Positions 4,952-47,377 of a stretch of DNA of 64,000 nt are shown here, piece by piece. A program made the position numbers and the translations under genes. The DNA is from Stackebrandtia nassauensis DSM 44728 (lineage in GTDB: Bacteria; Actinomycetota; Actinomycetes; Mycobacteriales; Micromonosporaceae). The notes under the pieces are model-generated. The model was given only the letters and a program-made list of their open reading frames with translations. It searched no databases and had not been told where the DNA came from. Positions within the stretch are counted from its first letter, which is position 1. Each line of letters opens with the position of its first letter. The stretch is from the NCBI RefSeq assembly GCF_000024545.1, contig NC_013947.1:620001-684000 (forward strand). Direction: 5' to 3'.

Positions 4952-5123
4952 GTGTTGGTCGTGCGAATTTCTGAGCGTGGGGAAGAACAAGTTCTTGAAC
5001 AGCTTGGCGAGCTGTAGAGCAACCGGTCGTGCGATCAGGTAGGGCTTTAAGGTGCATCACATGTCGTGCCCGTAACCGATCTCGACGACGTTGATCAAGT
5101 AAAGTGTTCGAAAATACACCAAC

Positions 5124-6119
5124 CTAGAGCAGCTTCTTCACGTTATCCCAGCTAGCCCACCCGCAGCCTTGATAATCGTATCCCCATACGATCACCACTG
5201 GGACAAACCCATCATGAACCCTGAGATAGCGGTCAGATGGTTCAAATTCTTTATCGATCATGTATTCAATCTTTGGAGCCTGAGCTGTCGGTTTTGAAGG
5301 AGACTTCTTAGGGGGGCGAGGGCCGTCAACTACGGGCGCATTTTTGAAAGGTTGAACTCGCGGGTCGGACTTCAGCGTGTCAGTAATGTTGGTGTACTTG
5401 AGGCTGGAGGCAGGGTCGTCAGAATCTCCTCCAGTACAGCTTTCTGTTGCTAGAGCAAGGTCTTGACCTGCAGTGACAACTGGATATCCCTTCTTGACAC
5501 CAATGAAGTAGGACGCATCTGTACGGGCCTTCTTGTCCAGGATATCGTCGCCGCAGAGATTGTTTGTGTTGCGCTCAATGACTACACCGAAAGGGGAAGC
5601 AGGGCTTGTGATACTAAGTGCCCCTCCCTTAGGTTGGTCTTTGGTGACACAATTCCATTGCCATGCACCTGGCCACTTTACCGGAACTACCTTGTTGTCG
5701 TCCCAGAGCCAGAAATAGAGCGCCCGCCAACTACTGTACTTGTCGCCAGAATTGTCGACCCATTCGAGGATTGCAGAGGCGTCAATATCCTGGTCACCAT
5801 CTAGATCAGCGAACTGAACTTTGGAGTCAACGCGGACATGCGCCCCGTTGTCGGCGTTTCCAGGTGGAGAGTACTTACCTTGGTTCAGCTGGACTTTTTC
5901 TTGAGGGACACCCTGGTCAAACAAATAGAAACTGGCGTTCTCGAGGATAAATGAATCCTCGATGGAAGACGATGTTGATTCAGGTTTACTGTCCGCGAAC
6001 CACCAAATGCAAACACCGAGGCACAGAATTCCAATTACCGAGAGAGCCATCCAGCGCGGTTTGATCCTGGAAGTCTGCCTGTCGGTGTTGCTATTTATTG
6101 AGCCTTCTTCGGTAGGCAT
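5124..6119 (-). CDS. Membrane-anchored extracytoplasmic protein, unknown
   Basis: The product has 331 residues. A polar, basic N-terminus is followed by one membrane helix at about 23-41 (WMALSVIGILCLGVCIWWF) and a long outside domain with several cysteines (e.g. WNCVTKDQ, NNLCGDD, ESCTGGD, GCGWASW). A Pro/Lys-rich linker (RPPKKSPSKPT) precedes the C-terminal part. The phrase KVQFADLDGDQDIDASAILEW resembles FG-GAP/VCBS-like calcium-binding stretches, but I would not assign a fold. It is the last gene of an AT-richer four-gene operon whose base composition differs clearly from the core genes on either side. Confidence 0.7.
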   Translation of the reverse strand: MPTEEGSINSNTDRQTSRIKPRWMALSVIGILCLGVCIWWFADSKPESTSSSIEDSFILENASFYLFDQGVPQEKVQLNQGKYSPPGNADNGAHVRVDSKVQFADLDGDQDIDASAILEWVDNSGDKYSSWRALYFWLWDDNKVVPVKWPGAWQWNCVTKDQPKGGALSITSPASPFGVVIERNTNNLCGDDILDKKARTDASYFIGVKKGYPVVTAGQDLALATESCTGGDSDDPASSLKYTNITDTLKSDPRVQPFKNAPVVDGPRPPKKSPSKPTAQAPKIEYMIDKEFEPSDRYLRVHDGFVPVVIVWGYDYQGCGWASWDNVKKLL

Positions 6120-6162
6120 TTAGTGGCCGCCTCTTCTCATTGCAGTCAACGTGATGTAATGA

Positions 6163-7032
6163 TTAGCTTGCAGGTGGCTTTAGTTTACCTCCTGGATCAT
6201 CTGGATTGACATCGGCTAGTTCCGGGGAGGGTGGGACAATGTCATCTAGCTTTTTCTCTATTGCGTCTATATTCTTCTTGAGCCCCTTTGAAATCGTCTT
6301 TTCTTCTGCTTGTGAATCGTCTTCGAGTTCATCTAGCTTTTTCTTCATTTGGTCCAGGATCTCGTTGACAAACTTGGCTTCGATGCTTCCTGCGGCTTCT
6401 GTGACTGTCCTAGAGGCATCGGCTATCTGAATGACTGCAACAGCTTTGGCGACGGCGCCCATAGGGCTCGCCGACGCGGCGATCGAAAGCAGTCCAGCGA
6501 CCTTGAAAAGGATATCCTTGCCTTCCTTTTCTGAGAGGAAGGGAGGCCATCCGTCGATTCCTTTCAATCCTTCGACTGTTGCTTCGCCTATGGAATAGGC
6601 GCGGCCGCGCATGCGGCTATAGAGATCGCGGTGGGAATCTGCTGCGGATTTTAGGGCACGAATTAGTTCCTTATGGAACTCTCGGTAAGTTTCCCATGGA
6701 GTGATGTAGTTGTCATCGAAGGAAGTTTTTGCTGTTCCACGCCACTCCGCTATCTTTAGCGAGCTATCACTCGACAAATAGGAGGCATCTTTTCCAGCGA
6801 TCTTGTCGTAGGCGTCTTCAAGCTGTTTGGAAATGTCATCGAACGGAGTAAGGTTCGGTTCCGTGAAGCGCTCAAATTCTCCTTCGATGTACGCGTATTT
6901 TTCGGCGAGCCCCAAGTCCTCTTTTGTGTCGGTCGAATCAGGATGGTCGCGAACCCATTCGATCATTCGCTTTTCCTGTGCCAGCTCGTAAATTTGTTGG
7001 GCGATCTGTCGGATCTCGCTCGGGGTAGTCAT
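6163..7032 (-). CDS. WXG/ESX-like helical protein
   Basis: The product has 289 residues. The N-terminal 180 residues are almost entirely predicted helix and contain W97-R98-G99 (IAEWRGTAKTSF), similar to the turn motif of WXG100-type secreted proteins. It is followed by FDDNYITPW and a second long helix. Residues about 182-213 are small and hydrophobic (VAGLLSIAASASPMGAVAKA), and the C-terminus is a charged coiled coil (about 220-275). This layout suggests a type VII-secreted or membrane-inserting factor, which is an inference. The ribosome-binding site GGAGGAG overlaps the end of the upstream gene, so the two are coupled. Confidence 0.65.
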   Translation of the reverse strand: MTTPSEIRQIAQQIYELAQEKRMIEWVRDHPDSTDTKEDLGLAEKYAYIEGEFERFTEPNLTPFDDISKQLEDAYDKIAGKDASYLSSDSSLKIAEWRGTAKTSFDDNYITPWETYREFHKELIRALKSAADSHRDLYSRMRGRAYSIGEATVEGLKGIDGWPPFLSEKEGKDILFKVAGLLSIAASASPMGAVAKAVAVIQIADASRTVTEAAGSIEAKFVNEILDQMKKKLDELEDDSQAEEKTISKGLKKNIDAIEKKLDDIVPPSPELADVNPDDPGGKLKPPAS

Positions 7033-7037
7033 TTTTG

Positions 7038-7571
7038 TTACTCCTCCTCAGGAAGAATGTCTTTCACCACGTCGCTGTCGTCTCGGCTATTGTCAGGTTT
7101 GGTTTCGGCTTCCCCTTCGGGGGCGATAGGTTCATCGTCCCGGTCAGCATCTTTCTCATCTTCTTTGACTTTCTTTTCATAGTCGTCGATTTGTTGATCC
7201 AATTGGTCACGGGCGGACCCTATCTCGTTTGCATTGTCTTTGTCTCGGTCAGCGAATCCTTTCGCCGCATCTTCAAGAACTTCTCCGACGTCGTAGAGGT
7301 TTTGCGAAGTTCGCGCGAGAATCGTTTGAATCAAGTCCCGCAAATCCTTGAACTCCTGTTTCGCTTCGCTTTGCCCTCGAGCCATTTTATTTCTGAAGAC
7401 TACATCCTCTTCATTAGTTCCCATTGCTTCGCCGTCATGCCACGCGTAGATTGACCCCAGACTCCTTGAGGCTTCGGCGTAAGTGTCTGCGACAATGGGT
7501 ATATATACATGACCTGCTTTCCACAAGTTGTAGCAATCAGTAGCGAACCCCGTATAGTCTTCATCGCCCAT
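7038..7571 (-). CDS. Acidic coiled-coil protein, unknown
   Basis: The product has 177 residues. ATG (MGDEDYTGF) is preferred over an in-frame TTG two codons upstream because AGGAG lies 7 bases before the ATG. The middle is helical. The last 60 residues are very acidic and probably disordered, ending EEE-stop, where GAGGAGGAG also serves as the ribosome-binding site for the next gene. It overlaps the upstream YbaB-like gene by 11 bases. Length and helical character would suit a partner or chaperone for the neighbouring WXG-like protein, but there is no recognised domain. Confidence 0.6.
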   Translation of the reverse strand: MGDEDYTGFATDCYNLWKAGHVYIPIVADTYAEASRSLGSIYAWHDGEAMGTNEEDVVFRNKMARGQSEAKQEFKDLRDLIQTILARTSQNLYDVGEVLEDAAKGFADRDKDNANEIGSARDQLDQQIDDYEKKVKEDEKDADRDDEPIAPEGEAETKPDNSRDDSDVVKDILPEEE

Positions 7572-8106
7572 TTTCAAGCTCCTCTCGGATTCTAGTCATC
7601 TTTTTGTCGAGACTTTGTTCTATGGCCTTGATTTCCGAATCCAGTTGTCGCATCGAGGATCGGATGGCTTCATTGATTCGATCGACGATCTGTGAGTCTC
7701 CGCGTCTCAAACAACCTGGTTGCAGTGCTACGAGTACGTCGCCATTCACGAATACGGCGACAGTGACGTCGCCGCTTACGGCTGTTGCGGTGGCGTTTGT
7801 GTCAGCAAAAGCCTGGTCTCGATGCCTCTTATACTCTTCCCATAGCCATTTTCCTTGCGGAGTGTTCATTATTTTTGGTTGTTGTGTCATCCGAACCTCA
7901 TGCAGGATGCCAGCATTTCGATCTCTGATTAGTGTTCGCACTTCAATAAGCAGATCCTCGATTAGCGTCTCTAGGGTTTCTTCAGTGATGTCATGGAGGC
8001 CTTTAGGGCCGACTGATATCAAGTAGCCGCTCTTGTTTGAGTACTGGCACCGTACTTTGTCATCTGGAGAGGAAATATCTACATGTGTTGGGCTATTTAT
8101 GTTCAT
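7561..8106 (-). CDS. YbaB/EbfC-like protein
   Basis: The product has 181 residues. The segment about 110-165 (AVSGDVTVAVFVNGDVLVAL followed by a helix ending in AIRSSMRQLDSEI) has the strand-strand-helix pattern of YbaB/EbfC nucleoid-associated proteins. The first half (about 15-65) may be a diverged second copy. In actinomycetes such proteins often precede WXG100-type genes, as here. It is the first gene of the AT-richer operon, with GAGG a few bases before the ATG. Assignment rests on pattern, not on a search. Confidence 0.5.
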   Translation of the reverse strand: MNINSPTHVDISSPDDKVRCQYSNKSGYLISVGPKGLHDITEETLETLIEDLLIEVRTLIRDRNAGILHEVRMTQQPKIMNTPQGKWLWEEYKRHRDQAFADTNATATAVSGDVTVAVFVNGDVLVALQPGCLRRGDSQIVDRINEAIRSSMRQLDSEIKAIEQSLDKKMTRIREELENGR

Positions 8107-8551: not shown

Positions 8552-8725
8552 ATGACGACTCTGCTTGAGCTGGCTCCTCGTGATGCTGGTGACGTGGTTG
8601 CCGATGTCGATGTTGAGTTTCCGCAAGGCGTCGGTATGAACGAGAACGTCGCCTGTTTTCTGACCTGCACGGTTTTGTGTGGGACTTCTGACTGTGGTGG
8701 ATTGCTGGTCGACGACGAGATCTGA
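8552..8725 (+). CDS. Lanthipeptide precursor peptide
   Basis: The product has 57 residues; the start is MTTLLELAPRD, with AAAGGA about 7 bases upstream. The N-terminal half is acidic and free of Cys (leader, LLELAPRDAGDVVADVDVEF). The C-terminal half is the likely core: four cysteines (35, 39, 43, 48) alternate with four dehydratable residues (T38, T40, T45, S46), enough for several (methyl)lanthionine rings. The leader start resembles the LLxLxx motif of class III/IV leaders. The cut site is not obvious; PQG or GVG near residues 24-28 are options. The synthetase follows after 95 bases. Confidence 0.8.
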   Translation: MTTLLELAPRDAGDVVADVDVEFPQGVGMNENVACFLTCTVLCGTSDCGGLLVDDEI

Positions 8726-8820
8726 CCCGGTTCGTGGCCTTGGTGGCGGTGGATGCGGTGGGTTTCGTATTTCGATGTGGTTACCGGCGTTGTCGAGTTC
8801 TGTGAGGAAGTGGATGCTGA

Positions 8821-11415
8821 ATGACTGCTAGAGGTGCGAAGGCTTCAGTTCCCGCCATCAAGGCCACTGTCTCGGATCTGGTGTTGGCCGATGGTCGATA
8901 CCGGATCCGGCGGGATGCGAATTGGCTTTACGCGGATCTTGTTGGTCACGGGTTGGCGGATCATGGGTGGAAGTTTCACGTCTCTTCGCGGCCAGTGGAT
9001 TTCCGTGAACTGATGGCCGTGTTGGTGCCGTTTTTGCTTGAGCGGGGTTGCGTTTTTAAGGTGGCTCGGTCGTTGCGGGTTCTGGGGGAGTTGAACGATG
9101 GGGCGTCGGCGCCAGCCAGTGTGGGGAAGGCCGTCACGATTTATCCGGAGCAGGATCGGGTGGCGCGGTTGGGCGGCGAGCTTGTGGAGTTGCTTCGCGG
9201 GTGGGTTGGGCCGAGGATCCTGAGTGATCGGCGGGTGGCGGTGGATGCCCCGGTGTACTACCGGTATGGGCCGTTTCGGACCACGCTGGTGGCCAATCGG
9301 CTTGGGAATCTCACGTCGGTTATGGCTGGTCCCGATGGGGAGAGTTTCGATGGGTGGGCTACGACCGCTTATCAGCAGCCGTCTTGGGTTGTCGACCCGT
9401 TTCGGTTGGGTGGTGAGGTTGGGGACGTTGTTGGGGGGCGGGCGGTTCGGCTTGGTACCCACTATGAGCCGCTGGCGGGGTTGGCGGAGTCGGCGCGGGG
9501 CAATGTGTACACCGCTACGGATGTTCGTACCGGTGAAGTGGTTGTGGTGAAGCAGGCGCGGGCTTATGTTGCTGAGTCGCTCGATGGGTTCGATGCTAGG
9601 ACTCAGTTGCGCAATGAGCGCTTTGTTCTTGGGGCGCTGCATGACGTTGCGGGGGTGGCGCGGTTTCGCGATCACTTTCGGCATGGTGAGGACGAGTATC
9701 TGGTCACCTCGTTCGACGGTCGGTTCAGCCTGTCGGAGTACGTCACTCGTAAGGGGCGGTATGTGCCGGTCGAGCGTTCTGAGGGTGGTGCCGGGGCGTC
9801 GGAGTTGGAGGAGTCTCGCAGCCTGGATGGGCTCGCTCACCGGCTCGCGAAGACGTTGCGTGACATACATGCTCGGGGGTTTCTGCTGCGCGATCTGAGC
9901 CCGAAGAATTTGATCGTGAACGCGACCGGTGATGGGGTCACGTTCATCGACTTCGGACACTGTAATCACCACGATGTGGTGATAAGGGGCGGTACCAAGG
10001 GGTACGCCCCGGCACGGCAGTTCGACGACGAGCCCGCCGAGCCGCGCGATGATCTGCACGCGCTGGGGATGACGCTGTTCGCCGCCACGATCGGGGCTGA
10101 GCCGGTTGTTGATGAGGATGATGCGGACGCTTCGCGGGTGATGGCGTTGCGGGTGCTGGGGCGGATGTACGGGGATCGGCCGCCAGCAGTGATCGCCGCG
10201 GTCGCCGATCTGTTGTCCGCTGATCCCGAGACTATGACGACCGCGTTCACCGCGTTGGTGGAGGGGCGGCTGGCTGGGGCGACGAGGCGGCCGCGATTCC
10301 CTGCGGCCGTGGTGCATCGGCGGGGGCCGGGTACCGCGGCGCTGGTTGAGCGTGTGCTCGCGCAGTTGGTGTCGCGCGCCAATCGGATCGTTGACGACGG
10401 GCGTGAGCCGGACCCGGGTGTCTATCGTGGCGCCGCGGGTATTGGTTTGTGTTTGTTGCCGCATCTGGAGCGCCCGGGTGTCGCCGACACCGTCGCGCGG
10501 CTCGCCAAGTTCAGCTCGCTCGCCGCCGATCAGGTGAGCTTGCGGCCGGGCCTGTACCTGGGTTCCACTGGCGTGGAGGTGTTCCTGCGGCGTGCCATTG
10601 CCGCGGGGGTGGCGGCGACGCCGTTGTCGCCGGAGCGGTTGTTCGGGGTTGCCGACGACGGCTTCGAAGGCGTGGATGTCATCAATGGCGCCGCCGGTAT
10701 CGGTCTGGGGCATCTGTTGTTGAACGAGTGGGATCCTCGGCCGGAACACGAGGACGTGGTTCGGCGCTGTCTCGAAGCGCTTGGTGAACCGGGCGCCGTG
10801 TTCGACCCCGCCGAGGAGGCCGAGGTTCCCGGACGTGACACCACTCTTGGTGTCTCGCATGGGGAAGGTGGCGTGGTCGAGTTCCTGCGGCACCACCACC
10901 GCCTGGCTCCATCGGAGGAGTCGCGGCGGCGACTCAACACCCGGGTGGCGGTGTTCGCCGAGCAGGTGCGGCGGTTCGTCGAGGCGTCGGCGAAACCCAG
11001 TGCTGTTCCGCTGTGCACCTCGTGGTGTCGGGGTATGGCCGGGATGGGTCGGGTGGTGCTCGCCGCGGGACGCCAGCTCGGTGACAGTTCTCTTGTGGAT
11101 CTCGCGGTGGAGTGCGCGGACGGATGCCTGCGTTGGCTTCCGCAGCTGGCCACCGCCGGGCAGTGTTGTGGGGTGGCGGGGATCGGCGAGCTGTTCTGCG
11201 ATCTCGTTTCTCACGATGACCGGTTCCTGGCCGCCGCCGAGTCCGCGGCCACGCAGCTGTTGATACTCAACGCCGACGCGCCCCCGGCCCCGCCGGGTCG
11301 CAATCAGGTGCAGCCCGGAAGTACGTCGTGGGCCAGCGGCGCCGCCGGAGTCCTCGACTTCTTGACCCGGCTGCGCGATCTCACGCCCCGCGGCACCGCG
11401 ATCGCGGCGTTCTGA
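8821..11415 (+). CDS. Three-domain lanthipeptide synthetase (LanL-type)
   Basis: The product has 864 residues. The N-terminal lyase-like region (about 1-210) has the family phrases DHGWKFHVS, FKVARSL and YYRYGPF. The kinase domain (about 214-490) has Lys244 (VVVKQ), the catalytic loop RDLSPKN with Asp358, and IDFG with Asp377. The C-terminal LanC-like cyclase (about 520-850) keeps zinc ligands: Cys736 in WCRG and Cys782-Cys783 in QCCG. Retained ligands argue for class IV (LanL) over class III (LanKC), whose cyclases lack them. The third ligand is Cys rather than the usual His of LanC enzymes. It dehydrates Ser/Thr by phosphorylation and elimination, then forms thioether rings on the peptide encoded just upstream. 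Confidence 0.88.
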   Translation: MTARGAKASVPAIKATVSDLVLADGRYRIRRDANWLYADLVGHGLADHGWKFHVSSRPVDFRELMAVLVPFLLERGCVFKVARSLRVLGELNDGASAPASVGKAVTIYPEQDRVARLGGELVELLRGWVGPRILSDRRVAVDAPVYYRYGPFRTTLVANRLGNLTSVMAGPDGESFDGWATTAYQQPSWVVDPFRLGGEVGDVVGGRAVRLGTHYEPLAGLAESARGNVYTATDVRTGEVVVVKQARAYVAESLDGFDARTQLRNERFVLGALHDVAGVARFRDHFRHGEDEYLVTSFDGRFSLSEYVTRKGRYVPVERSEGGAGASELEESRSLDGLAHRLAKTLRDIHARGFLLRDLSPKNLIVNATGDGVTFIDFGHCNHHDVVIRGGTKGYAPARQFDDEPAEPRDDLHALGMTLFAATIGAEPVVDEDDADASRVMALRVLGRMYGDRPPAVIAAVADLLSADPETMTTAFTALVEGRLAGATRRPRFPAAVVHRRGPGTAALVERVLAQLVSRANRIVDDGREPDPGVYRGAAGIGLCLLPHLERPGVADTVARLAKFSSLAADQVSLRPGLYLGSTGVEVFLRRAIAAGVAATPLSPERLFGVADDGFEGVDVINGAAGIGLGHLLLNEWDPRPEHEDVVRRCLEALGEPGAVFDPAEEAEVPGRDTTLGVSHGEGGVVEFLRHHHRLAPSEESRRRLNTRVAVFAEQVRRFVEASAKPSAVPLCTSWCRGMAGMGRVVLAAGRQLGDSSLVDLAVECADGCLRWLPQLATAGQCCGVAGIGELFCDLVSHDDRFLAAAESAATQLLILNADAPPAPPGRNQVQPGSTSWASGAAGVLDFLTRLRDLTPRGTAIAAF

Positions 11416-11437
11416 CGGACCAGCGGAGGTTCATGAC

Positions 11438-12904
11438 ATGGACGCGATCGAGCATGACGTGGTGATCGCCGGTGGCGGTCCGACCGGGTTGATGCTGGCG
11501 GGTGAGCTGGCGCTGGCGGGGGTTGATGTCGCTGTTGTGGAGCGTCGGGTCGGTCAGGAGCTGCCCGAGTCGCGGGCGGGCGGGCTGCACTCCCGCACCA
11601 TCGAGGTTCTCGATCAGCGGGGGATCGCTGATCGTTTTCTGTCGCGGGGGAAGAGGTCGCGGGCCGTGGGGTTCGCCACGTCGCAAGTGGACATCGGTGA
11701 CCTTCCCACTCGGCACGGCTACCTGCTTGGCTTGTGGCAGAACCACACCGAACATGAGTTGGCCGGATGGGTCGGAGAACTCGATGTGCCGGTCTACAGG
11801 GGACGCGAAGTGATCGGTTTCGCGCAGGACGACAGCGGTGTCGACATCGAAGTGTCGGACGGGGGACCGATGCGGGCGCGGTATCTCGTCGGTTGCGATG
11901 GCGGACGCAGCTTGGTCCGCAAGACCGCCGGTATCGACTTTCCTGGCTGGGACCCGACTTTCAGTTGCCTGGTCGCCGAGGTCGAGGTGGAGCGGGTGCC
12001 GGATTGGTTGTCCCGTCAGCCCGTTGGCCCTGCTCGTCGGCGTGCCGGGTCGGGGAAGGGGACGCCGGTGCGGATCGTGGTCGCCGAGTCGCGCGTCGGA
12101 CGGACCGGTGAGGCCAGCCTGCACGATCTCAGCGAGGCGCTGATCGCCGAATACGGCACCGATTACGGGGTGAGCAACCCGAGCTGGATCTCCCGGTTCG
12201 GGGACACGTCGCGGCAGGCGGCGTCCTATCGGGACCGTCGGGTGCTGTTGGCCGGGGACGCCGCGCACGTGCACGCCCCGGTGAGTGGGCAGGGCCTCAA
12301 CCTCGGGGTGCAGGACGCGGTGAACCTGGGCTGGAAGCTGGCCCAGGTGGTCGCGGGCGCCTCGGCGGAGTCCTTGTTGGACACCTACCATGCCGAGCGG
12401 CATCCGGTGGCGGCCAGGGTGTTGCGACACACGATGGCGCAGCACGCGCTGTTGCGCACCGACGAGCGCACCCGGTCGCTGCGCGACATCATGTCCGAGT
12501 TGCTGAGTCTGTACGAGCCGCGCCAGCGCGTCGCCGCGATGATCGCCGGTCTGGACATCCGCTATGACTGCGGCGAGGGGCATCCGCTGCTGGGGCGCCG
12601 CATGCCCGATCTCGACCTCGTCACCGCCGACGGGCCGCGACGGGTGTTCACCCTGCTGCACCAGGCCCGGCCGGTACTGCTGAACCTGGGTGAGCCCAAC
12701 GGCTTCGACGTGACGCCGTGGGCGGGCCGGATTCGCTCCGTGGACGCCAAAGCCGCCGCGACCTGGGAACTGCCGCTGCTCGGCGAGGTCGCCGCTCCCG
12801 CCGCCCTCGTGATCCGCCCGGACGGCTACGTCGCCTGGGCCGGGGAGCTCACCGACGCTAGCCTTCCCGACGCGTTGACCTCGTGGTTCGGGGAACCGGA
12901 GTAG
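11438..12904 (+). CDS. FAD-dependent aromatic-hydroxylase-type monooxygenase
   Basis: The product has 488 residues. The Rossmann motif GGGPTGL (12-18), followed by an acidic end of strand (VVERR), binds FAD. A CDGGRS motif and a GD motif (LLAGDAAHVHAP then GQGLNLGVQDAVNLGW) complete the PHBH-type fold, and the last 100 residues look like the thioredoxin-like tail of the PgaE/Rox-type group. It starts 22 bases after the synthetase with GGAGG upstream, so it is co-transcribed and may hydroxylate or oxidise the lanthipeptide. It could instead act on an unrelated small aromatic compound or an antibiotic. Confidence 0.88.
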   Translation: MDAIEHDVVIAGGGPTGLMLAGELALAGVDVAVVERRVGQELPESRAGGLHSRTIEVLDQRGIADRFLSRGKRSRAVGFATSQVDIGDLPTRHGYLLGLWQNHTEHELAGWVGELDVPVYRGREVIGFAQDDSGVDIEVSDGGPMRARYLVGCDGGRSLVRKTAGIDFPGWDPTFSCLVAEVEVERVPDWLSRQPVGPARRRAGSGKGTPVRIVVAESRVGRTGEASLHDLSEALIAEYGTDYGVSNPSWISRFGDTSRQAASYRDRRVLLAGDAAHVHAPVSGQGLNLGVQDAVNLGWKLAQVVAGASAESLLDTYHAERHPVAARVLRHTMAQHALLRTDERTRSLRDIMSELLSLYEPRQRVAAMIAGLDIRYDCGEGHPLLGRRMPDLDLVTADGPRRVFTLLHQARPVLLNLGEPNGFDVTPWAGRIRSVDAKAAATWELPLLGEVAAPAALVIRPDGYVAWAGELTDASLPDALTSWFGEPE

Positions 12905-12928
12905 GTGAAGCGCGGCACCCGCGAAAGG

Positions 12929-12964
12929 GACGACGCCGAGCGGCATGGGGCGCTCGGCGTCGTC
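12929..12964. terminator. Hairpin ending the lanthipeptide operon
   Basis: The 14-bp arms GACGACGCCGAGCG (12929-12942) and CGCTCGGCGTCGTC (12951-12964) enclose an 8-base loop. It lies between the plus-strand monooxygenase and the convergent protease gene, so it can serve both. Confidence 0.75.
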
Positions 12965-12993
12965 GAACTGGGTGGGCGTGGTTATTGGGTGGT

Positions 12994-13827
12994 CTAGCCG
13001 GTGGTCTCGGCGATCCAGTCGGACCACCAGTCGATGTTGGTGTAGACCTCCGGGGTGCTCAGGCACTTGTCGCCCCCACCTCGGCTGGTGATGCCGAAGA
13101 TGCGCCACTGGTCGCCGACCTTGTGCATGGCCGGGCTTCCGGAGTCGCCGGAGCAGGGTCCGGCCTTGCCGTCGGGCGTGTCGACGCACAGGTCGCCGGG
13201 GGAGATGTCGAACCCGGGCTCGCCGAACTTGCAGTCGTCGAAGTTCAGCAGTGTGGTGTCGAGCTCCTGGGCTTGCTGTGAGATCGAGTTCGGGTCGTCC
13301 CGGTCGGTCCGGCCCCAGCCGATGATGCGGATCGGTTTGTCGCCGGACGGGTGGCCCGACATGGCGACCGGCTTCTCCTTGGCGGCGGTCTTGAGTTTGA
13401 TCAGCGCGATGTCGGCCACGCTCTCGTTGTCGGTCGCCCAGTAGGGGTGCGTCGTGAACGACTCGATCTCGATCTGCTCACCGGCGAGGTTGTCGTTGGA
13501 GCCGATCCGGATGTGGTAGTCGGCCGGGTTCAGCAGTGCCCCGTCCTCTACTTTGGATACACAGTGGGCCGCGGTCAGGACCCACTCGGGGGCGATGAGC
13601 GAACCGCCGCAGCGCTGCGGGTTGGGCCGCTCGCCCGGCTCCTTGTACTGCATCGAGGCGTGGAACTTGTACTCCTCGCTGGCGGGTTGGCCGCCAATGA
13701 TCTTGGTGCTGGCGTCGTCACCGTTGCCAGAGCCGTATTCGCGATCGGCGTAGGCCATGCCGCCGACGCCGAGGGCCGCCACAGCGACCACCACGGCCGC
13801 GGCCGTGAGGGCGAATTTTCGCCGCAT
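12994..13827 (-). CDS. Secreted S1-family serine protease
   Basis: The product has 277 residues. A signal peptide ends near AYA (about 25-27) and a short propeptide precedes IIGG (43-46), the activation site of chymotrypsin-fold proteases. The triad is His88 (TAAHC), Asp139 (DIALIKL) and Ser229 (GDSGSP). The residue six before the Ser, which sets the S1 pocket, is Gly223 rather than the Asp of trypsin, so Lys/Arg specificity is doubtful. It is convergent with the lanthipeptide operon; a role in leader removal is possible but not supported by more than location. Confidence 0.92.
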   Translation of the reverse strand: MRRKFALTAAAVVVAVAALGVGGMAYADREYGSGNGDDASTKIIGGQPASEEYKFHASMQYKEPGERPNPQRCGGSLIAPEWVLTAAHCVSKVEDGALLNPADYHIRIGSNDNLAGEQIEIESFTTHPYWATDNESVADIALIKLKTAAKEKPVAMSGHPSGDKPIRIIGWGRTDRDDPNSISQQAQELDTTLLNFDDCKFGEPGFDISPGDLCVDTPDGKAGPCSGDSGSPAMHKVGDQWRIFGITSRGGGDKCLSTPEVYTNIDWWSDWIAETTG

Positions 13828-42403: not shown

Positions 42404-43387
42404 TCACGAGCTCGCCTTACTCTCGTCGGGCTCCGCAGAACCCTCATCGGACACTTCGGACTCCACAGTCCCCGAACCGACCTCAACCTCAACGAGCTTG
42501 CCCGCCCTGGCATCCGCCGAATCCCAATCCACCATCCGCAGGCCCCCCGCCTCACCGGGAACCAACACCCCCCGCTTCCCCTTGACCCGCAACAAGTACA
42601 CGATCGCACCCACGATCATCACCAACGACAACCACTCATTGACCCGCAGCCCAAGGAAGTCGTGGGCCACATCAATCCGCCGCCCCTCAATCCAGAACCG
42701 CCCCACGCCATACCCGAGCACATAAATCGCGAACGCCCGCCCGGCCCCGAACTTGAACCGCTTGTCCAGCCGCCAAATCACCGCCGCCAACCCAAAATTC
42801 CACAGTGACTCATACAAGAAAGCGGGCTCATAAGCCTCAGCCCCACGGAACTCAGGCGGAATATCCCGCTGGTGGGCCGCGTCGATCTCCACACCCCAGG
42901 GAGCATTCGTCGGCAACCCATACAACTCCTGGTTGAACCAATTACAAGGCCGGGCAACAGCCTGCCCCAAGGGCAACCCGATCGCCGCCGCGTCGGCAAC
43001 CATCGAAAACGGCACTTGCCCACGCCGACAAGCGATCCAAACCCCCACGCCCCCCAACACGATCGCCCCGGGAACCCCCAACCCACCTTCCCACACCGCG
43101 AACGCCTTCAACGGCTCCCCATCCGCCCCAAAATAAGCGTCGGGCGAAGTAACAACGTGGTACAGCCGCCCGCCAACGATCCCGAACGGAACAGCCCAAA
43201 CCGCCAAGTCCAACACAAAGAACCGAGGCGCCCCCCGCCTCCGCAACAACGCCTCAACAACCCAACAAGCCGCCACAATCCCCGCCACGATGCACAACGC
43301 ATAAGCCCGAATCGGCACAGCGAGCCCAAACGGCAACGGAATCTCCCAAACGCTCTGCGCCGGGCTGGGAATAAACGCATAGTCCAC
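42404..43387 (-). CDS. lgt: Prolipoprotein diacylglyceryl transferase
   Basis: The product has about 327 residues from GTG 43387 (VDYAFIPSPAQSV). An upstream GTG at 43429 is possible. Seven membrane helices are expected. The Lgt signature is visible as ARPCNWFNQELYGLPT (family GRxxNFxNxELxG), with GGRLYHVV and GYGVGRFWIEGRR. It moves diacylglycerol from phosphatidylglycerol to the lipobox Cys, so it would mature the lipoproteins encoded elsewhere in this window. The C-terminal 50 residues are an acidic tail. Confidence 0.93.
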   Translation of the reverse strand: MDYAFIPSPAQSVWEIPLPFGLAVPIRAYALCIVAGIVAACWVVEALLRRRGAPRFFVLDLAVWAVPFGIVGGRLYHVVTSPDAYFGADGEPLKAFAVWEGGLGVPGAIVLGGVGVWIACRRGQVPFSMVADAAAIGLPLGQAVARPCNWFNQELYGLPTNAPWGVEIDAAHQRDIPPEFRGAEAYEPAFLYESLWNFGLAAVIWRLDKRFKFGAGRAFAIYVLGYGVGRFWIEGRRIDVAHDFLGLRVNEWLSLVMIVGAIVYLLRVKGKRGVLVPGEAGGLRMVDWDSADARAGKLVEVEVGSGTVESEVSDEGSAEPDESKASS

Positions 43388-43491
43388 GGCGACAAACGTT
43401 ACCGAGTCCCCGTGAGCCGCGCTACGCACTGTCGCACTTGGGACAAAACCCTACCGACCATCCCCACCCCACTCGGCCGCCTCGCCGCGTT

Positions 43492-43573
43492 CCCCTGCGG
43501 GGCCCGGCTTCTCACGCCGCTGTCCCTCGTCCCCGTCTCCGGGTCAGTTCCCGGCTGGCTCCCGCCCACCCCG
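43492..43573 (+). repeat. Dispersed repeat, copy A
   Basis: About 82 bases, starting with the palindrome CCCCTGCGGGG, then CGCTGTCCCTCGTCCCC, and ending CGGCTGGCTCCCGCCCACCC. It matches copies B (44538-44619) and C (48977-49059, opposite strand) block by block. Intergenic, between lgt and the toxin-antitoxin pair. Confidence 0.75.
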
Positions 43574-43635
43574 CAAACGCACGGTCTCCAAGGTTTCGGC
43601 GCCCCACAATGCCGGCCGCTTAAGCACGGGCATGT

Positions 43636-43941
43636 TCACAGCTGGATGGACAGACGTCCAACAGTTGCCGTGATTGTCAGCTCACCGCCAATGGCGTGAA
43701 GATATGCGGCCATCGTCTCGGTGTCCAACCGCGTTTTGCCGCTTTCGATTTGGCTTATCCGTCCCTGAGTTACGCCCATAGCCTCGGCTACCTGTGATTG
43801 GGTAAGCCCCTGCGCCTTCCGCAAGCTGGCAAGCTCGTGCCCGCGTTCAGCGTCAATCATTTCCTGCTTGATCGCGTCAATGCGGGCACGCTGCTCCGTG
43901 GAAATTCCAGAAGTCAGTTCGGACATGTCCCGAAGTTCCAT
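43636..43941 (-). CDS. XRE-type antitoxin (HigA-like)
   Basis: The product has 101 residues; a start at residue 6 (MSELTSG) is also possible. The HTH is clear: LASLRKAQGLTQSQVAEAMG then VTQGRISQIESGKTRLDTET (about 38-77). The C-terminal IGGELTITATVG is typical of HigA2-type antitoxins. Its start overlaps the toxin stop by one base (TAATG), giving a toxin-first pair, the HigBA order. It should bind the palindrome upstream of the toxin gene. Confidence 0.88.
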   Translation of the reverse strand: MELRDMSELTSGISTEQRARIDAIKQEMIDAERGHELASLRKAQGLTQSQVAEAMGVTQGRISQIESGKTRLDTETMAAYLHAIGGELTITATVGRLSIQL

Positions 43942-44324
43942 TACTCCTCCTCCGCATTTAGTGCGTCAAGGTACGCGGCGTACCGGGCGTCCGCTTCCTT
44001 GACGGCCTTGTCATACCAAACTGTCCATTGACGCTGACCAGCCTTGTTGCCTGCGACCAAAAAGATAGCGCGACGTTCAGGGTCAAACGCGAACAACAGC
44101 CGAATACTGACACGCGAGCCGTTCCGTGCGCGAAGTTCTCGCATATGTCGATACGCGCTGCCCTCGATTGCGCCCACCGTCGGCCTCCGCAGGGCCGGCC
44201 CGTGCTCTTGGAGTCGCTCCAAGGCCGCGATCACGTGCTCAAAGCTGTCAGGGTCCTCCTTCTGCAACTGCTGAATCCACTCGATGACGTCCTTGAAAAA
44301 GCGGAGTTGATAGTTACCGGCCAC
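43941..44324 (-). CDS. RelE/HigB-family toxin
   Basis: The product has 127 residues. Family signs are FKDVIEWIQQL, a PALRRPTVGAIEGSAYRHMR core, ELRAR...SRVSIRLLFAFDPERRAIFLVAGNK and a C-terminal helix (the Gp49/HigB-like group). Such toxins cleave mRNA on the ribosome. The Arg/Lys-rich strand region matches the catalytic face, but individual residues cannot be assigned with confidence. It is coupled to its antitoxin. Confidence 0.87.
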   Translation of the reverse strand: MAGNYQLRFFKDVIEWIQQLQKEDPDSFEHVIAALERLQEHGPALRRPTVGAIEGSAYRHMRELRARNGSRVSIRLLFAFDPERRAIFLVAGNKAGQRQWTVWYDKAVKEADARYAAYLDALNAEEE

Positions 44325-44332
44325 GCCGATAA

Positions 44333-44354
44333 ATTAGCACTAGCTAATACTAGC
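44333..44354. promoter_or_regulatory. Toxin-antitoxin operator
   Basis: ATTAGC (44333-44338) and GCTAAT (44343-44348) form an inverted repeat, and ACTAGC occurs twice (44339-44344, 44349-44354). It starts 9 bases upstream of the toxin start in an AT-rich patch. This fits autoregulation by the antitoxin complex. Confidence 0.6.
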
Positions 44355-44537
44355 GCACGCACTGACGTGACTGCAACATCACATTAAGTGGCCTTGGGGG
44401 TGGTGTATGCCTTACTCGCACACCGCCGCGGTGGTCTCCTTGTGAGGCCTGAGTCCCAGGGGTGCGGTCACCAGAACCCCAGTATCTGGCTCCCGCCCGC
44501 TCCGCTGTGGGGCGGTCATGCAGACAATGCCCCGTGC

Positions 44538-44619
44538 CCCCTGCGGGGCCCGGGTTCACAAGACGCTGTTCTTCGTCCCCCGCCTATGAGCCGGTTCTCG
44601 GCTGGCTCCCACCCACCCC
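44538..44619 (+). repeat. Dispersed repeat, copy B
   Basis: Begins CCCCTGCGGGGCCCGG, continues CGCTGTTCTTCGTCCCCCGC and ends CGGCTGGCTCCCACCCACCC. Closest to copy C in its CCGCCTAT middle. The 340-base gap 44325-44665 otherwise holds the toxin-antitoxin operator and no gene; a partial extra match (GGCTCCCGCCCGCTCC) lies near 44488. Confidence 0.75.
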
Positions 44620-44665
44620 AAACGTTGGGGGCAACGGTTCGCTAGGGCGGGCCTGTTTTGGTGGG

Positions 44666-45133
44666 TTACACGGACTCGGTTGATGGTGGCTCCCAAGATT
44701 GGATGACGCAGTGCTCCAGGGTGTGGGTACGAAGGGTTTCCAGAGCCCTGTCCGAGACGACGAGGTGGGCCTTGGCGGTCTGTCCAAAGTCGTCGTGCCC
44801 AGGACGACCGGTTATCTGTAGCCACTTCAACTGGGGCGTTTCGGCGTCGTCGCCCATCAGCTCGTATGCTTCCTCGCTCATGGTGACTTCCATGTCTGCC
44901 AAAGCGAACCCCGTCAACTCAGCGTCGGTCAGCTTGTCCGCCAGCGCGGTAGTCACCGCGAAACACGGGAAGCTTTCCAACAGTTCATCGCCCAGCCAGT
45001 CGGTGATTGACAGATGGAACACGCTCACGCGTGGTGGGTGAACGCTGGTGTCAAGATCTATGTTGTCGCCGAACTCGCCCGGGACTTCCGGCTTGAGCAA
45101 GTGATACATCATGTGGGCGTCTACTTTCTTCAT
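44666..45133 (-). CDS. Candidate immunity protein for the adjacent HNH toxin
   Basis: The product has 155 residues from MKKVDAH; starts at 45157 or 45112 (MMYHLLKPEVPGEFG) are also possible. It is an acidic single-domain protein with the phrases LKPEVPGEFG, WLGDELLESFP, WLQITGRPGHDDFG and LVVSDRALETL, which I associate with actinobacterial Imm11-like/hypothetical immunity proteins. It lies 51 bases downstream of the toxin gene on the same strand, the expected position. No enzyme motif is seen. Confidence 0.6.
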   Translation of the reverse strand: MKKVDAHMMYHLLKPEVPGEFGDNIDLDTSVHPPRVSVFHLSITDWLGDELLESFPCFAVTTALADKLTDAELTGFALADMEVTMSEEAYELMGDDAETPQLKWLQITGRPGHDDFGQTAKAHLVVSDRALETLRTHTLEHCVIQSWEPPSTESV

Positions 45134-45184
45134 CTGATGGTGGTGGAACGCGACCATACCGGCGTGTGGTGGCTGAACCGGGCA

Positions 45185-46159
45185 CTATCGAATTGGCGGG
45201 TTGAACTGGTGACCATATTCGTTGTCGACCTTTGTGGCGTGGTCCAGTAGCTGCTGCTTCGTGGGGCTCGGGTTGTCTCGGTAGAACTCGTTCCAGCTCA
45301 TGCGAATGGCACTGAGGTGAACACGGTTGTTAGTCTCGCCTTTGGGGATGCCTCGCAGATTTTCGTAGGAGTGCATCTCGCTTTCGGTTACGGCTCCTTG
45401 ATAGAGCTTCAGGGTTTTCTGTTCCACGGCATGATGGACAACCACCTTGCCTTCGGTGTCCGGGTGTTTGTCGAAAAACGTCTTCTTGTAATTCCGCGAC
45501 GTCGAGGTTCCGAATGTTGCACGGCCGTCGGCGGCGGGGTGAGGTTTTGAAACCTGAGTACGGCCGCGGCTTGACGATACGGTGGCCTGTGGTGTTGACA
45601 TTGGAGTGGGGTTCGCGCGTGGTTGGCTGGCTTCAGAGCTTAAACCCTCAAGCTCCTGAGCCTCAGTTTCCAGGCGCTTCTGATACCCGTTGACCGCGTT
45701 GATGGCGGTTTGTGCGCCTTGCCGTGCTCCGTCGATCGTGGATGATGCGTCATGGCAGAGATTGACGATTCCCTCGGTACCTGCCAGTTGCGCCTGTTCC
45801 ATGGCGCCTTTGACGCTCTCGCCCGAGGTATCGATGCTGATCTTTGTTGTGCCCAGCGTGGACACGGTGGTGCCGAGTATGGCGATGACGTCGGGAATGG
45901 GCGCGGTGTCGGGCACCTTGTCCAGAGTTTCCGCCGCCTTGTCAGTCTCACCTCGTGCCGAGGCCAGCTGTTCCAACGCTTCCCGCAGTTTCTCGAGCGC
46001 CAAATCCAACGCTTGTGCGGTCGCCGCGACACCTAGTTGTTCGAGCCGAGACTTCTTGTCGTCCGTGCTGGAATACGCCTGTTGAGTTATCGCTACGGCG
46101 TCGTTGATCGTGCTGCGAGCCTGGTGTAGCTGAGTCTTTACCGTGTCGAACTCTGACAT
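45185..46159 (-). CDS. Polymorphic toxin with C-terminal HNH/Endo VII-type nuclease
   Basis: The product has 324 residues. The start MSEFDTVKTQLHQA has GAGGAC upstream. The N-terminal 175 residues are helical coiled coil (a packing or export module). Residues about 178-225 form a Ser/Pro/Thr-rich linker. The C-terminal 95 residues hold VHHAVEQ (His242-His243), ENLRGIPK (266-273), and HLSAIR (281-286) with WNEFYR, the pattern of 'xHH' HNH/Endonuclease VII-fold toxin domains. It should cut nucleic acid in competitors or on induction. No signal peptide is visible. Confidence 0.72.
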   Translation of the reverse strand: MSEFDTVKTQLHQARSTINDAVAITQQAYSSTDDKKSRLEQLGVAATAQALDLALEKLREALEQLASARGETDKAAETLDKVPDTAPIPDVIAILGTTVSTLGTTKISIDTSGESVKGAMEQAQLAGTEGIVNLCHDASSTIDGARQGAQTAINAVNGYQKRLETEAQELEGLSSEASQPRANPTPMSTPQATVSSSRGRTQVSKPHPAADGRATFGTSTSRNYKKTFFDKHPDTEGKVVVHHAVEQKTLKLYQGAVTESEMHSYENLRGIPKGETNNRVHLSAIRMSWNEFYRDNPSPTKQQLLDHATKVDNEYGHQFNPPIR

Positions 46160-46294
46160 AGAGGTGTCCTCGTCCGCCGATGGAGGTTTCCGGGGTTGAT
46201 GCGCAGAGTAGTGGAGCGTTGCGACACCAGTCACGACCGTCTAAGCGAGGCAGGACCCTGAAACCGACCCGCCGCGCTGTAGGGAAGCGGTTCG

Positions 46295-46513
46295 CTAGGC
46301 GTTGGCTTTGACGGTGCGGAGGAGGGCGGTCCAGTCGGAGCGGGTGATGGTGAGGGGGGTGACGGTGGGGTGCTTGGAGTCGCGGACGGCTATGCCGTGA
46401 TGAGGGCGGGCCCCGACTTCGACACAGTTACCGCCATTGCTGGGGCTTCGTGAACTCTTGCGCCACGCAATGGCAGCGCGTGTCGTGGCGTCGAGAGTTC
46501 GCAGTACTGGCAT
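46295..46513 (-). CDS. DUF397 protein
   Basis: The product has 72 residues. AWRKSSRSPSNGGNCVEVG and IAVRDSKHP are the DUF397 signature, and the end ITRSDWTALLRTVK is typical. DUF397 proteins pair with XRE/DUF5753 regulators, as here, where the regulator gene ends 6 bases upstream. They may act as small antagonists or partners in development-related control. Confidence 0.92.
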   Translation of the reverse strand: MPVLRTLDATTRAAIAWRKSSRSPSNGGNCVEVGARPHHGIAVRDSKHPTVTPLTITRSDWTALLRTVKANA

Positions 46514-46519
46514 GGCGGA

Positions 46520-47377
46520 CTAGATCTCCTTGGCAATGGATTTGATCTTGCGCATCGTCGCGTCTCGGGTAAGTGCCTGGCTCTCCATTTGAGCGTACAT
46601 TCGCTCGATCCGATCCATCTCTTCGTCATCCATGTGGCATACGAGGCCAGAGACGTTCTCTGTGTACCCAACCGTGGGGTAGGGGGTGGGCATCTGGTAC
46701 TTCGCGAGACCCGTGCCGACACTCCCAAGTCCGTGTATCCAGGTTCCCAATGGAAGGAGCCGCAAGTCAATGTTCGGGTTATCGGCTTGAGCAATCAGAT
46801 GGTCAAGCTGAACTCTCATGACTTTACGGTCACCAACACGATGGTAAAGGGCAGCTTCGTGAAGTATCGAAGTGACTTGCGGCGCTTGATTTCTCGTGAG
46901 GATCCGCTGGCGAGCGATGCGCAGTTCTGTGAGACGACGGACGGCAAGCTTGTCGTCCAGGCTCGGGTCGTCATTGATGAGCGCGTGGGCATAGTCGGGC
47001 GTTTGGAACAAGCCGTGAATCAAGACGACGTCTACGAGAGAAATCGCCGTGGCCCGTTCTTCTACCCATAGAAAGTCAGCGAACTCAGCCGTGAGAAACG
47101 TCTTGAACGGATCCCACCAACCATGGTTCGCGACATCATCGCAGAGTTCGAGGATCTCGTTGCGTTGGTCGAAGTCGTTGAGTCCATAGTGGTCAATCAG
47201 TCCGAGAAGAAGATTGCTTCGAATTGGGGAGGCGCCACTCTCGAAGCGGGACAACGATGCTGGGTCGCGGTGGATCGCGTCTGCCGCGTCTGCGAGCGTT
47301 AGGCCCGCTGCAAGGCGTAGCTTTCGCAACTTCGATCCAAGCCACCGTGCTCTCAAGGATCGACTCGTCCGCGCCAT
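46520..47377 (-). CDS. XRE-family regulator with DUF5753 domain
   Basis: The product has 285 residues. The start MARTSRSLRARWLG has GGAGG 5 bases upstream. The HTH (about 10-65) reads LGSKLRKLRLAAGLTLADAA and HRDPASLSRFESG. The C-terminal DUF5753 region (about 95-280) includes LIHGLFQTPDYAHALI and RQRILTRNQAP. It belongs to the large actinomycete XRE-DUF397 two-gene family and is divergent from three small unknown genes. Confidence 0.92.
   Translation of the reverse strand: MARTSRSLRARWLGSKLRKLRLAAGLTLADAADAIHRDPASLSRFESGASPIRSNLLLGLIDHYGLNDFDQRNEILELCDDVANHGWWDPFKTFLTAEFADFLWVEERATAISLVDVVLIHGLFQTPDYAHALINDDPSLDDKLAVRRLTELRIARQRILTRNQAPQVTSILHEAALYHRVGDRKVMRVQLDHLIAQADNPNIDLRLLPLGTWIHGLGSVGTGLAKYQMPTPYPTVGYTENVSGLVCHMDDEEMDRIERMYAQMESQALTRDATMRKIKSIAKEI

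What the first reader, a model, noticed from the sequence alone, without database searches (positions are those of the whole stretch)
8552..12904. Compact LanL-type lanthipeptide locus with a co-transcribed FAD monooxygenase
Seen: a 57-residue precursor with four Cys and four Thr/Ser in its C-terminal half, a lyase-kinase-cyclase synthetase, and an FAD monooxygenase starting 22 bases later. There is no transporter or dedicated protease in the operon. Flavin monooxygenases of the aromatic-hydroxylase type are not a standard tailoring enzyme of class IV lanthipeptides, so the product may be unusual. That it acts on the peptide is inference.
Basis: partly seen in the sequence, partly recalled or inferred. 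Interest (0 to 1): 0.78.

Follow-up and report, generated by a model that had tools for sequence, protein, structure and literature searches.

The report
Class IV lanthipeptide locus beside monooxygenase
A soil actinomycete carries a small, intact-looking gene set for making a ring-containing peptide of a known kind, and the oxygenase gene that follows it looks like a widespread general enzyme rather than a new peptide-modifying step.

Summary
In detail: at 8552-12904 (+) lie a 57-residue precursor (LanA), an 864-residue lyase-kinase-cyclase synthetase (LanL) and, 22 bases later, a 488-residue FAD monooxygenase. LanL keeps the catalytic residues examined and three zinc ligands (Cys-Cys-Cys) and falls in a supported clade with solved chain 8car. 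The precursor is real: the two closest LanL loci (Nonomuraea, Asanoa) carry homologues directly upstream, and 18 of 19 clade relatives have a short ORF with the same PR..G-type leader motif. The tailoring idea fares poorly. The monooxygenase is a PRK06834-family enzyme, found beside 0 of 19 clade relatives. The 11 other genomes of a class sample with its closest homologues (54-68% identity) show only kinase-domain matches to the LanL model. Of 84 other synthetase loci one has a strong neighbouring homologue, from another lineage; four have weak flavoprotein matches. The precursor has no Tyr, Trp or His. I file it as a new member of a known kind; tailoring is possible but unlikely.

The parts
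8552..8725 (+). lanA: 57-aa lanthipeptide precursor, leader with LLELAPRDAG and VEF, core with ACFLTCTVLCGTSDC
   Evidence: homologues upstream of the two closest LanL genes; invariant C35, T38, C39, T40, C43 among the three
8821..11415 (+). lanL: class IV lanthionine synthetase (phospho-Ser/Thr lyase, kinase, zinc LanC-like cyclase), Cys-Cys-Cys clade of chain 8car
   Evidence: K51, K103, R148 (lyase), K244, D358, D377 (kinase), H680, C736, C782, C783 (cyclase)
11438..12904 (+). FAD-dependent aromatic-hydroxylase-type monooxygenase, NCBIfam PRK06834 subfamily
   Evidence: 839.7 bits against a cut-off of 625; 54-68% homologues in 11 other genomes of a class sample of 316
12929..12964 (.). 14-bp stem hairpin between the monooxygenase and the convergent protease gene, possible transcription end
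   Evidence: -48.5 kcal/mol for 12900-12990, z -4.30; no T-run follows, and the intrinsic-terminator scan did not list it

Best explanation
This is an ordinary minimal class IV lanthipeptide locus of the Cys-Cys-Cys zinc clade that holds solved chain 8car (recalled as CuvL), in Stackebrandtia nassauensis. LanL is expected to phosphorylate Thr38, Thr40, Thr45 and Ser46 of LanA, eliminate phosphate in the lyase domain to give dehydro residues, and add Cys35, 39, 43 and 48 to them at a zinc site, giving up to four thioether rings. Leader removal and export would be done by enzymes coded elsewhere. The monooxygenase is most likely a generic group A flavin hydroxylase of a small aromatic compound that came to lie downstream of lanL; it is probably transcribed with it but is not a needed tailoring step. 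Shown: gene anatomy, homology, conserved catalytic residues, phylogeny, absence of the monooxygenase beside the sampled relatives. Inferred: the reactions, ring number, co-transcription, and the monooxygenase's substrate.
For: LanL domains and model scores. Catalytic residues: K51, K103, R148 align with ThurKC K65, K117, R163 (alignment to chain 8sao; that 8sao is ThurKC I infer from the matching residues; their role from PMC10604976 passages), and they are largely conserved in 36 relatives. Zinc triad C736, C782, C783; of 84 other panel loci 20 read Cys-Cys-Cys, 45 Cys-Cys-His and 19 neither. Clade of 20 at support 1.0 in a tree of 33 chosen synthetases; chain 8car falls inside it, support 1.0. 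Precursor homologues; PR..G (17) or IR..G (1) leader ORFs in 18 of 19 clade relatives (chosen by eye). Monooxygenase beside 0 of 19 clade loci; the HMM rang on the window, L071, L072 and L021, of which L072 and L021 were not among its seeds. The 11 class-sample genomes with close monooxygenase homologues have at best 142 bits to the LanL model, kinase part only. Own-genome paralogue, 63% identical, at C1:409275-410750 beside NmrA-like and GNAT genes.
Against: LanL scores below NCBIfam's class IV cut-off (584 of 650), at the low end of its clade: 15 scored relatives give 590.7 to 825.4 bits, 6 of them also under 650. The 22-base spacing and shared strand do fit one operon. One other class IV locus (L128, genome G044) has an FAD_binding_3 monooxygenase directly upstream of lanL, so such pairs occur more than once. 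Third-position G+C of the first 600 bases of the monooxygenase gene is 0.76, like lanL (0.74), and 0.91 after that, which could mean joint arrival. One genome with a 62% monooxygenase homologue, G004 of the same genus, does carry a class IV/III-type synthetase (538.9 bits, under the cut-off), but 2.8 Mb away, of another type (zinc positions read D-F-H).
Confidence: 0.75

Rival explanations
1. The monooxygenase is a dedicated tailoring enzyme of this one pathway: it oxidises the LanL product, most plausibly a thioether sulfur (sulfoxide) or Phe36, making the first tailored class IV lanthipeptide.
For: 22-base same-strand spacing; a strong hairpin only after the monooxygenase; a second FAD monooxygenase, of another lineage, directly upstream of lanL in L128; FAD oxidoreductases reported near class IV clusters (PMC7268733 passages).
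Against: Beside 0 of 19 clade relatives, including the two whose LanL are 59-65% identical; close homologues in genomes without a LanL-like match beyond kinases; precursor has no Tyr, Trp or His, only Phe23 and Phe36, while this enzyme group, as recalled, acts on activated phenol-like rings; top solved chains are rifampin and polyketide hydroxylases.
Confidence: 0.13
2. The monooxygenase is a rifampicin-type drug-inactivating enzyme whose gene only happens to follow lanL (a special case of the best explanation, not exclusive of it).
For: Top solved-structure match is rifampin monooxygenase 5vqb (E 4.2e-108); rifampin monooxygenase model 461 bits.
Against: The rifampin model's curated cut-off is 800 bits, not met; Iri model 347 of 950; PRK06834 fits far better, 839.7. 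Polyketide oxygenase 4k2x scores the same as 5vqb (365.6 and 365.9 bits).
Confidence: 0.1
3. The locus is a silent or decaying remnant acquired with the low-G+C island upstream.
For: The flank 5001-8000 has 49-51% G+C against 68.1% for the genome; lanA 54.6%; of the 4 other sampled genomes of the genus (G004, G046, G066, G083) none has this LanL: G004 gives a 33% partial match, the others none at E 1e-40, and three of them have a different synthetase, 24-25% identical (L138, L161, L162).
Against: All three frames are open; the catalytic residues examined are intact; core residues conserved among the three closest precursors.
Confidence: 0.1

Closest known systems
CuvL / curvocidin (solved chain 8car/8cav; that this chain is CuvL is recalled, the paper was seen only as a reference title)
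   Same: Same domain order, 35% identity over 871 aligned positions, Cys-Cys-Cys zinc motif, same supported clade
   Different: Different sub-branch (8car groups with L069 and L070); the CuvA precursor and its gene cluster could not be compared
VenL / venezuelin (Goto 2010, PMC2843593, passages) and SgbL / globisporin (PMC12328550 and PMC9889658 passages)
   Same: Lyase-kinase-cyclase synthetase with zinc site; VenA has four Cys and four Ser/Thr in the core and its cluster has no protease gene
   Different: The venezuelin cluster has putative transport genes venTH. In my panel the commoner class IV type reads Cys-Cys-His (45 loci, 1 of them with DFG) and this type Cys-Cys-Cys (20 loci, 14 with DFG); that VenL and SgbL are of the first type is recalled
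PRK06834-family FAD monooxygenases; rifampin monooxygenase 5vqb; polyketide oxygenase 4k2x
   Same: Whole-length PRK06834 match over cut-off; about 366 bits to 5vqb and 4k2x
   Different: Not over the rifampin model's cut-off; substrate unknown

Membership tests
[quoted passage not shown]
   RamC_N, Pkinase, LANC_like in order; class IV model 584 bits, class III 288
class IV lanthionine synthetase (LanL) | NCBIfam NF038150 curated cut-off (650 bits) | tested here: not met
   584 bits; 6 of 15 scored clade relatives are also under 650, range 590.7-825.4, so the cut-off sits inside this clade
class IV lanthionine synthetase (LanL) | zinc ligands in the cyclase, which separate class IV from class III | tested here: met
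   C736, C782, C783, from automatic alignment
class IV lanthionine synthetase (LanL) | dehydrates and cyclises a cognate precursor | not testable with these tools
   needs expression
Cys-Cys-Cys clade of chain 8car (recalled as CuvL) | groups with chain 8car in a supported clade | tested here: met
   clade of 21 including 8car and the window, support 1.0, in a tree of 34 chosen sequences
PRK06834 FAD monooxygenase subfamily | model cut-off 625 bits | tested here: met
   839.7 bits
rifampin monooxygenase | model cut-off 800 bits | tested here: not met
   461.4 bits
lanthipeptide tailoring enzyme | recurs beside related lanthipeptide synthetases | tested here: not met
   0 of 19 clade loci; 1 of 84 panel loci has a strong match, of another lineage, and 4 have weak flavoprotein matches
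lanthipeptide tailoring enzyme | acts on the peptide | not testable with these tools
   needs expression with and without the enzyme

The most novel reading that the evidence does not exclude
The monooxygenase has been recruited, here and separately in genome G044, as the first tailoring enzyme of a class IV lanthipeptide, oxidising a thioether or Phe36 of the ring-bearing peptide.
Probability: 0.13. Interest if true: 0.6.

Novelty: new member of a known kind. Interest (0 to 1): 0.24.

Why it matters
It adds one clean, minimal locus to a class IV group with few studied members, and a leader signature (PR..G followed by a V.F-like motif) that should help find the often unannotated precursors of that group. 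It also shows why a neighbouring flavin enzyme should not be read as tailoring without a check of relatives.

Tried and rejected
Rejected: rifampin resistance as the assigned function of the monooxygenase (cut-off not met). Rejected: class III assignment of the synthetase (288 bits against 584; zinc ligands present). Left open: joint horizontal arrival of the three genes; G+C rises gradually from the flank (about 50%) through lanA and lanL to the monooxygenase, which does not separate the cases. The promoter scan gave 0 sites (0.4 expected by chance) and the terminator scan 4 (4.7 expected), one of them, 11611-11634, inside the monooxygenase gene; neither says anything. The defence library gave kinase-domain matches for LanL, two matches for the protease and one weak LeoBC match for an upstream gene. 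Rough adjacency estimate: 15 FAD_binding_3 matches over 150 bits in the own genome and 6,487 protein genes give about 0.5% per locus for a direct neighbour, so about 0.3 expected over the 65 other loci with a zinc motif if other genomes are alike, against 1 seen (L128); no enrichment can be claimed.

Limits: the panel of 84 loci comes; some are cut by contig ends (for example L060, L108, L122, L168, L169); 19 of 84 did not read as a zinc type, some probably through misalignment (for example L175, which matches chain 8car at 461 bits, more than the window does, but was left out of the tree and of the clade count; no monooxygenase near it). L142-L147 are weaker matches (409-427 bits), class III-like. 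Not every lower-scoring hit was fetched. L127 is the same locus as L009 and was dropped. The trees used 33 and 34 chosen sequences of 85. One search looked for [PI]R..G after I had seen the motif; I chose the LanA-like ORFs by eye, chance matches also appear there, and L067 was taken. Two of the 11 genomes are incomplete (G115 78%, G342 81%). The HMM had the window and L036-L054 as seeds, so window and L071 are circular controls. Papers on curvocidin, on SgbL residues, on a further class IV product and the class III/IV review were not held. PMC9576775 and PMC10676384 passages added nothing used here.

Full report
Where it is. The window is bases 620001-684000 of a single-contig genome of 6,841,557 bases. 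That equals the published length of Stackebrandtia nassauensis LLR-40K-21 (6,841,557 bp, 68.1% G+C, 6,487 protein genes; PMC3035245 passages), so I take it as that strain.

The observation. The precursor has four Cys (35, 39, 43, 48) and four Thr/Ser (38, 40, 45, 46) in its second half. The gap from lanL to the monooxygenase is 22 bases. A 14-bp stem hairpin (12929-12964) sits between the monooxygenase and the convergent protease gene (z -4.30 against shuffles), without a T-run; the stretches between lanA and lanL and around the lanL-monooxygenase gap fold no better than shuffles (z 0.93 and -0.32). This fits one transcript, but that is inference.

The precursor is real. Pfam and NCBIfam gave no match for it up to E 1. 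The scan of genome contigs returned two LanL relatives, Nonomuraea typhae (L008, 64%) and Asanoa siamensis (L009, 59%). Both carry a homologous precursor directly upstream, 49% identical over 47 and 57 residues, with the leader LLELAPRDAG, a VEF motif and a core ACxxTCTxxC. The window differs from both in having a fourth Cys. In the wider clade 18 of 19 relatives have a short ORF near the start of lanL with PR..G (17) or IR..G (1, L068) and Cys further on; L065 has none and its synthetase match is cut short (motif sought after it was seen, ORFs chosen by eye).

The synthetase is class IV. It has RamC_N, Pkinase and LANC_like domains. The class IV model gives 584 bits, under its cut-off of 650, and the class III model 288. 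Fifteen scored relatives of the clade give 590.7 to 825.4 bits, six of them also under 650, so the window is at the low end. Lyase residues K51, K103 and R148 align with K65, K117 and R163 of ThurKC (alignment; K65 and R163 essential and K117 contributing according to PMC10604976 passages). Kinase K244, D358, D377 and cyclase H680, C736, C782, C783 are present. In a panel of 84 other loci 45 read Cys-Cys-His, 20 Cys-Cys-Cys and 19 neither, some through misalignment. In a tree of 33 chosen synthetases the window and 19 relatives form a clade with support 1.0; with solved chain 8car added the clade has 21 members and support 1.0; 8car is 35% identical to the window and closest to L070 and L069, 49% and 48%. 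I recall 8car/8cav as CuvL of curvocidin; the paper was not held and I saw only its title in reference lists. Two further Cys-Cys-Cys loci, L130 and L157, sit in the other clade.

The monooxygenase. It matches FAD_binding_3 and Rng_hyd_C and PRK06834 at 839.7 bits over a cut-off of 625; the rifampin monooxygenase model gives 461 of 800. The top solved relatives are rifampin monooxygenase and polyketide oxygenases, about 366 bits. The genome has 51 FAD_binding_3 matches, fragments included, 15 of them over 150 bits, and a 63% paralogue at 409275-410750. In the family sample 80 of 101 genomes have a homologue at E 1e-60 or better.

Is it linked to lanthipeptides? An HMM built from 20 monooxygenases finds nothing in 36 LanL loci and rings on the controls. 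Over 84 loci it finds one strong neighbour, L128 (E 2.8e-102), and four weaker flavoprotein matches: L135 (1.9e-18, 6.8 kb away), L145 (9.6e-14, 1.1 kb, class III-like synthetase), L138 (7e-5, 3.8 kb) and L170 (7e-4, 0.4 kb, other strand). In the clade it is 0 of 19. L128 has a good class IV LanL (880 bits) with the monooxygenase 118 bases upstream on the same strand, but that enzyme is 38% identical over 402 positions, gives 306 bits to PRK06834 and lies far off in the tree. The genomes with the two nearest LanL have monooxygenases only up to 46% (Asanoa) and 45% (Nonomuraea) identical. In a class sample of 316 genomes 11 besides the own have a homologue at E 1e-145 or better, 54-68% identical. 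Searched with the class IV model at E 1e-30, all 11 give matches, but the best is 142 bits, every listed match lies within model positions 147-573, that is the kinase part and its edges, and 0 of 11 passes the cut-off; two of the 11 genomes are only 78% and 81% complete. No LanL lies in the flanks held for those 11 loci. Against this, G004, of the same genus, has a 62% homologue and also a synthetase of another type (538.9 bits), 2.8 Mb apart. So, in these samples, the monooxygenase family lives mostly without LanL and this LanL clade lives without the monooxygenase.

Chemistry. The precursor has no Tyr, Trp or His; its only aromatic residues are Phe23 and Phe36. Enzymes of this group, as I recall, hydroxylate activated phenol-like rings. 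Position 36 is Trp in L008 and Tyr in L009, where no such gene is adjacent. Thioether oxidation is conceivable but I recall no precedent for this enzyme group.

History. The flank at 5001-8000 has 49-51% G+C against 68.1% for the genome. Third-position G+C is 0.74 in lanL, 0.76 in the first 600 bases of the monooxygenase gene and 0.91 in the rest. The four other sampled genomes of the genus lack this LanL; three have a different synthetase. Horizontal arrival of at least lanA and lanL is likely; whether the monooxygenase came with them is not settled.

Print. Walker et al. [quoted passage not shown] My searches for class IV lanthipeptide with Stackebrandtia nassauensis (0 papers), Stackebrandtia nassauensis with lanthipeptide (3 papers, listing only), stackepeptin (7 papers, listing only) and lanthipeptide with FAD or flavin monooxygenase terms (and 5 papers, listings only) showed no title or abstract start that reports this locus or a tailored class IV product; the papers were not read for it and the library lacks most subscription papers.

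Verdict. A sound new member of a known kind; the headline reason for interest, the monooxygenase, is most likely a neighbour of general function. Tailoring stays open at about 13%.

Noticed in passing
window 5124-8106 (-): Four adjacent unknown genes on the minus strand in a stretch of about 50% G+C (genome 68.1%), with only weak matches (WXG100, coiled-coil, LeoBC at 25.6 bits); probably an acquired island ending near lanA.
   Followed up: partly
window 12994-13827 (-): Trypsin-family protease with a signal-peptide-like start, convergent with the monooxygenase; tblastn showed no counterpart in L008 or L009 above 50 bits.
   Followed up: partly
L122, L172, L173 (same clade): Near-identical cores GPQACVNTCKRTVCSS(F/W)PCCPSIV with five Cys in three genomes; a Cys-rich class IV precursor group.
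   Followed up: no
L128:9525-13949: Monooxygenase followed by class IV lanL and a candidate precursor ORF (LQKLQ in the leader, chosen by eye) in genome G044; the only other close pair of this kind in the panel.
   Followed up: partly
L130 and L157: Cys-Cys-Cys zinc motif inside the otherwise Cys-Cys-His class IV branch of the tree, suggesting a separate change of the zinc ligand.
   Followed up: no
L008:12121-13794 (+): In Nonomuraea typhae the gene after lanL reads, by eye, like a secreted serine hydrolase of the beta-lactamase/D-Ala-D-Ala peptidase kind; the family search was given another frame and found nothing, so this is untested.
   Followed up: no
window 42404-47071: Another run of genes with low third-position G+C (0.66-0.75) in the window.
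   Followed up: no
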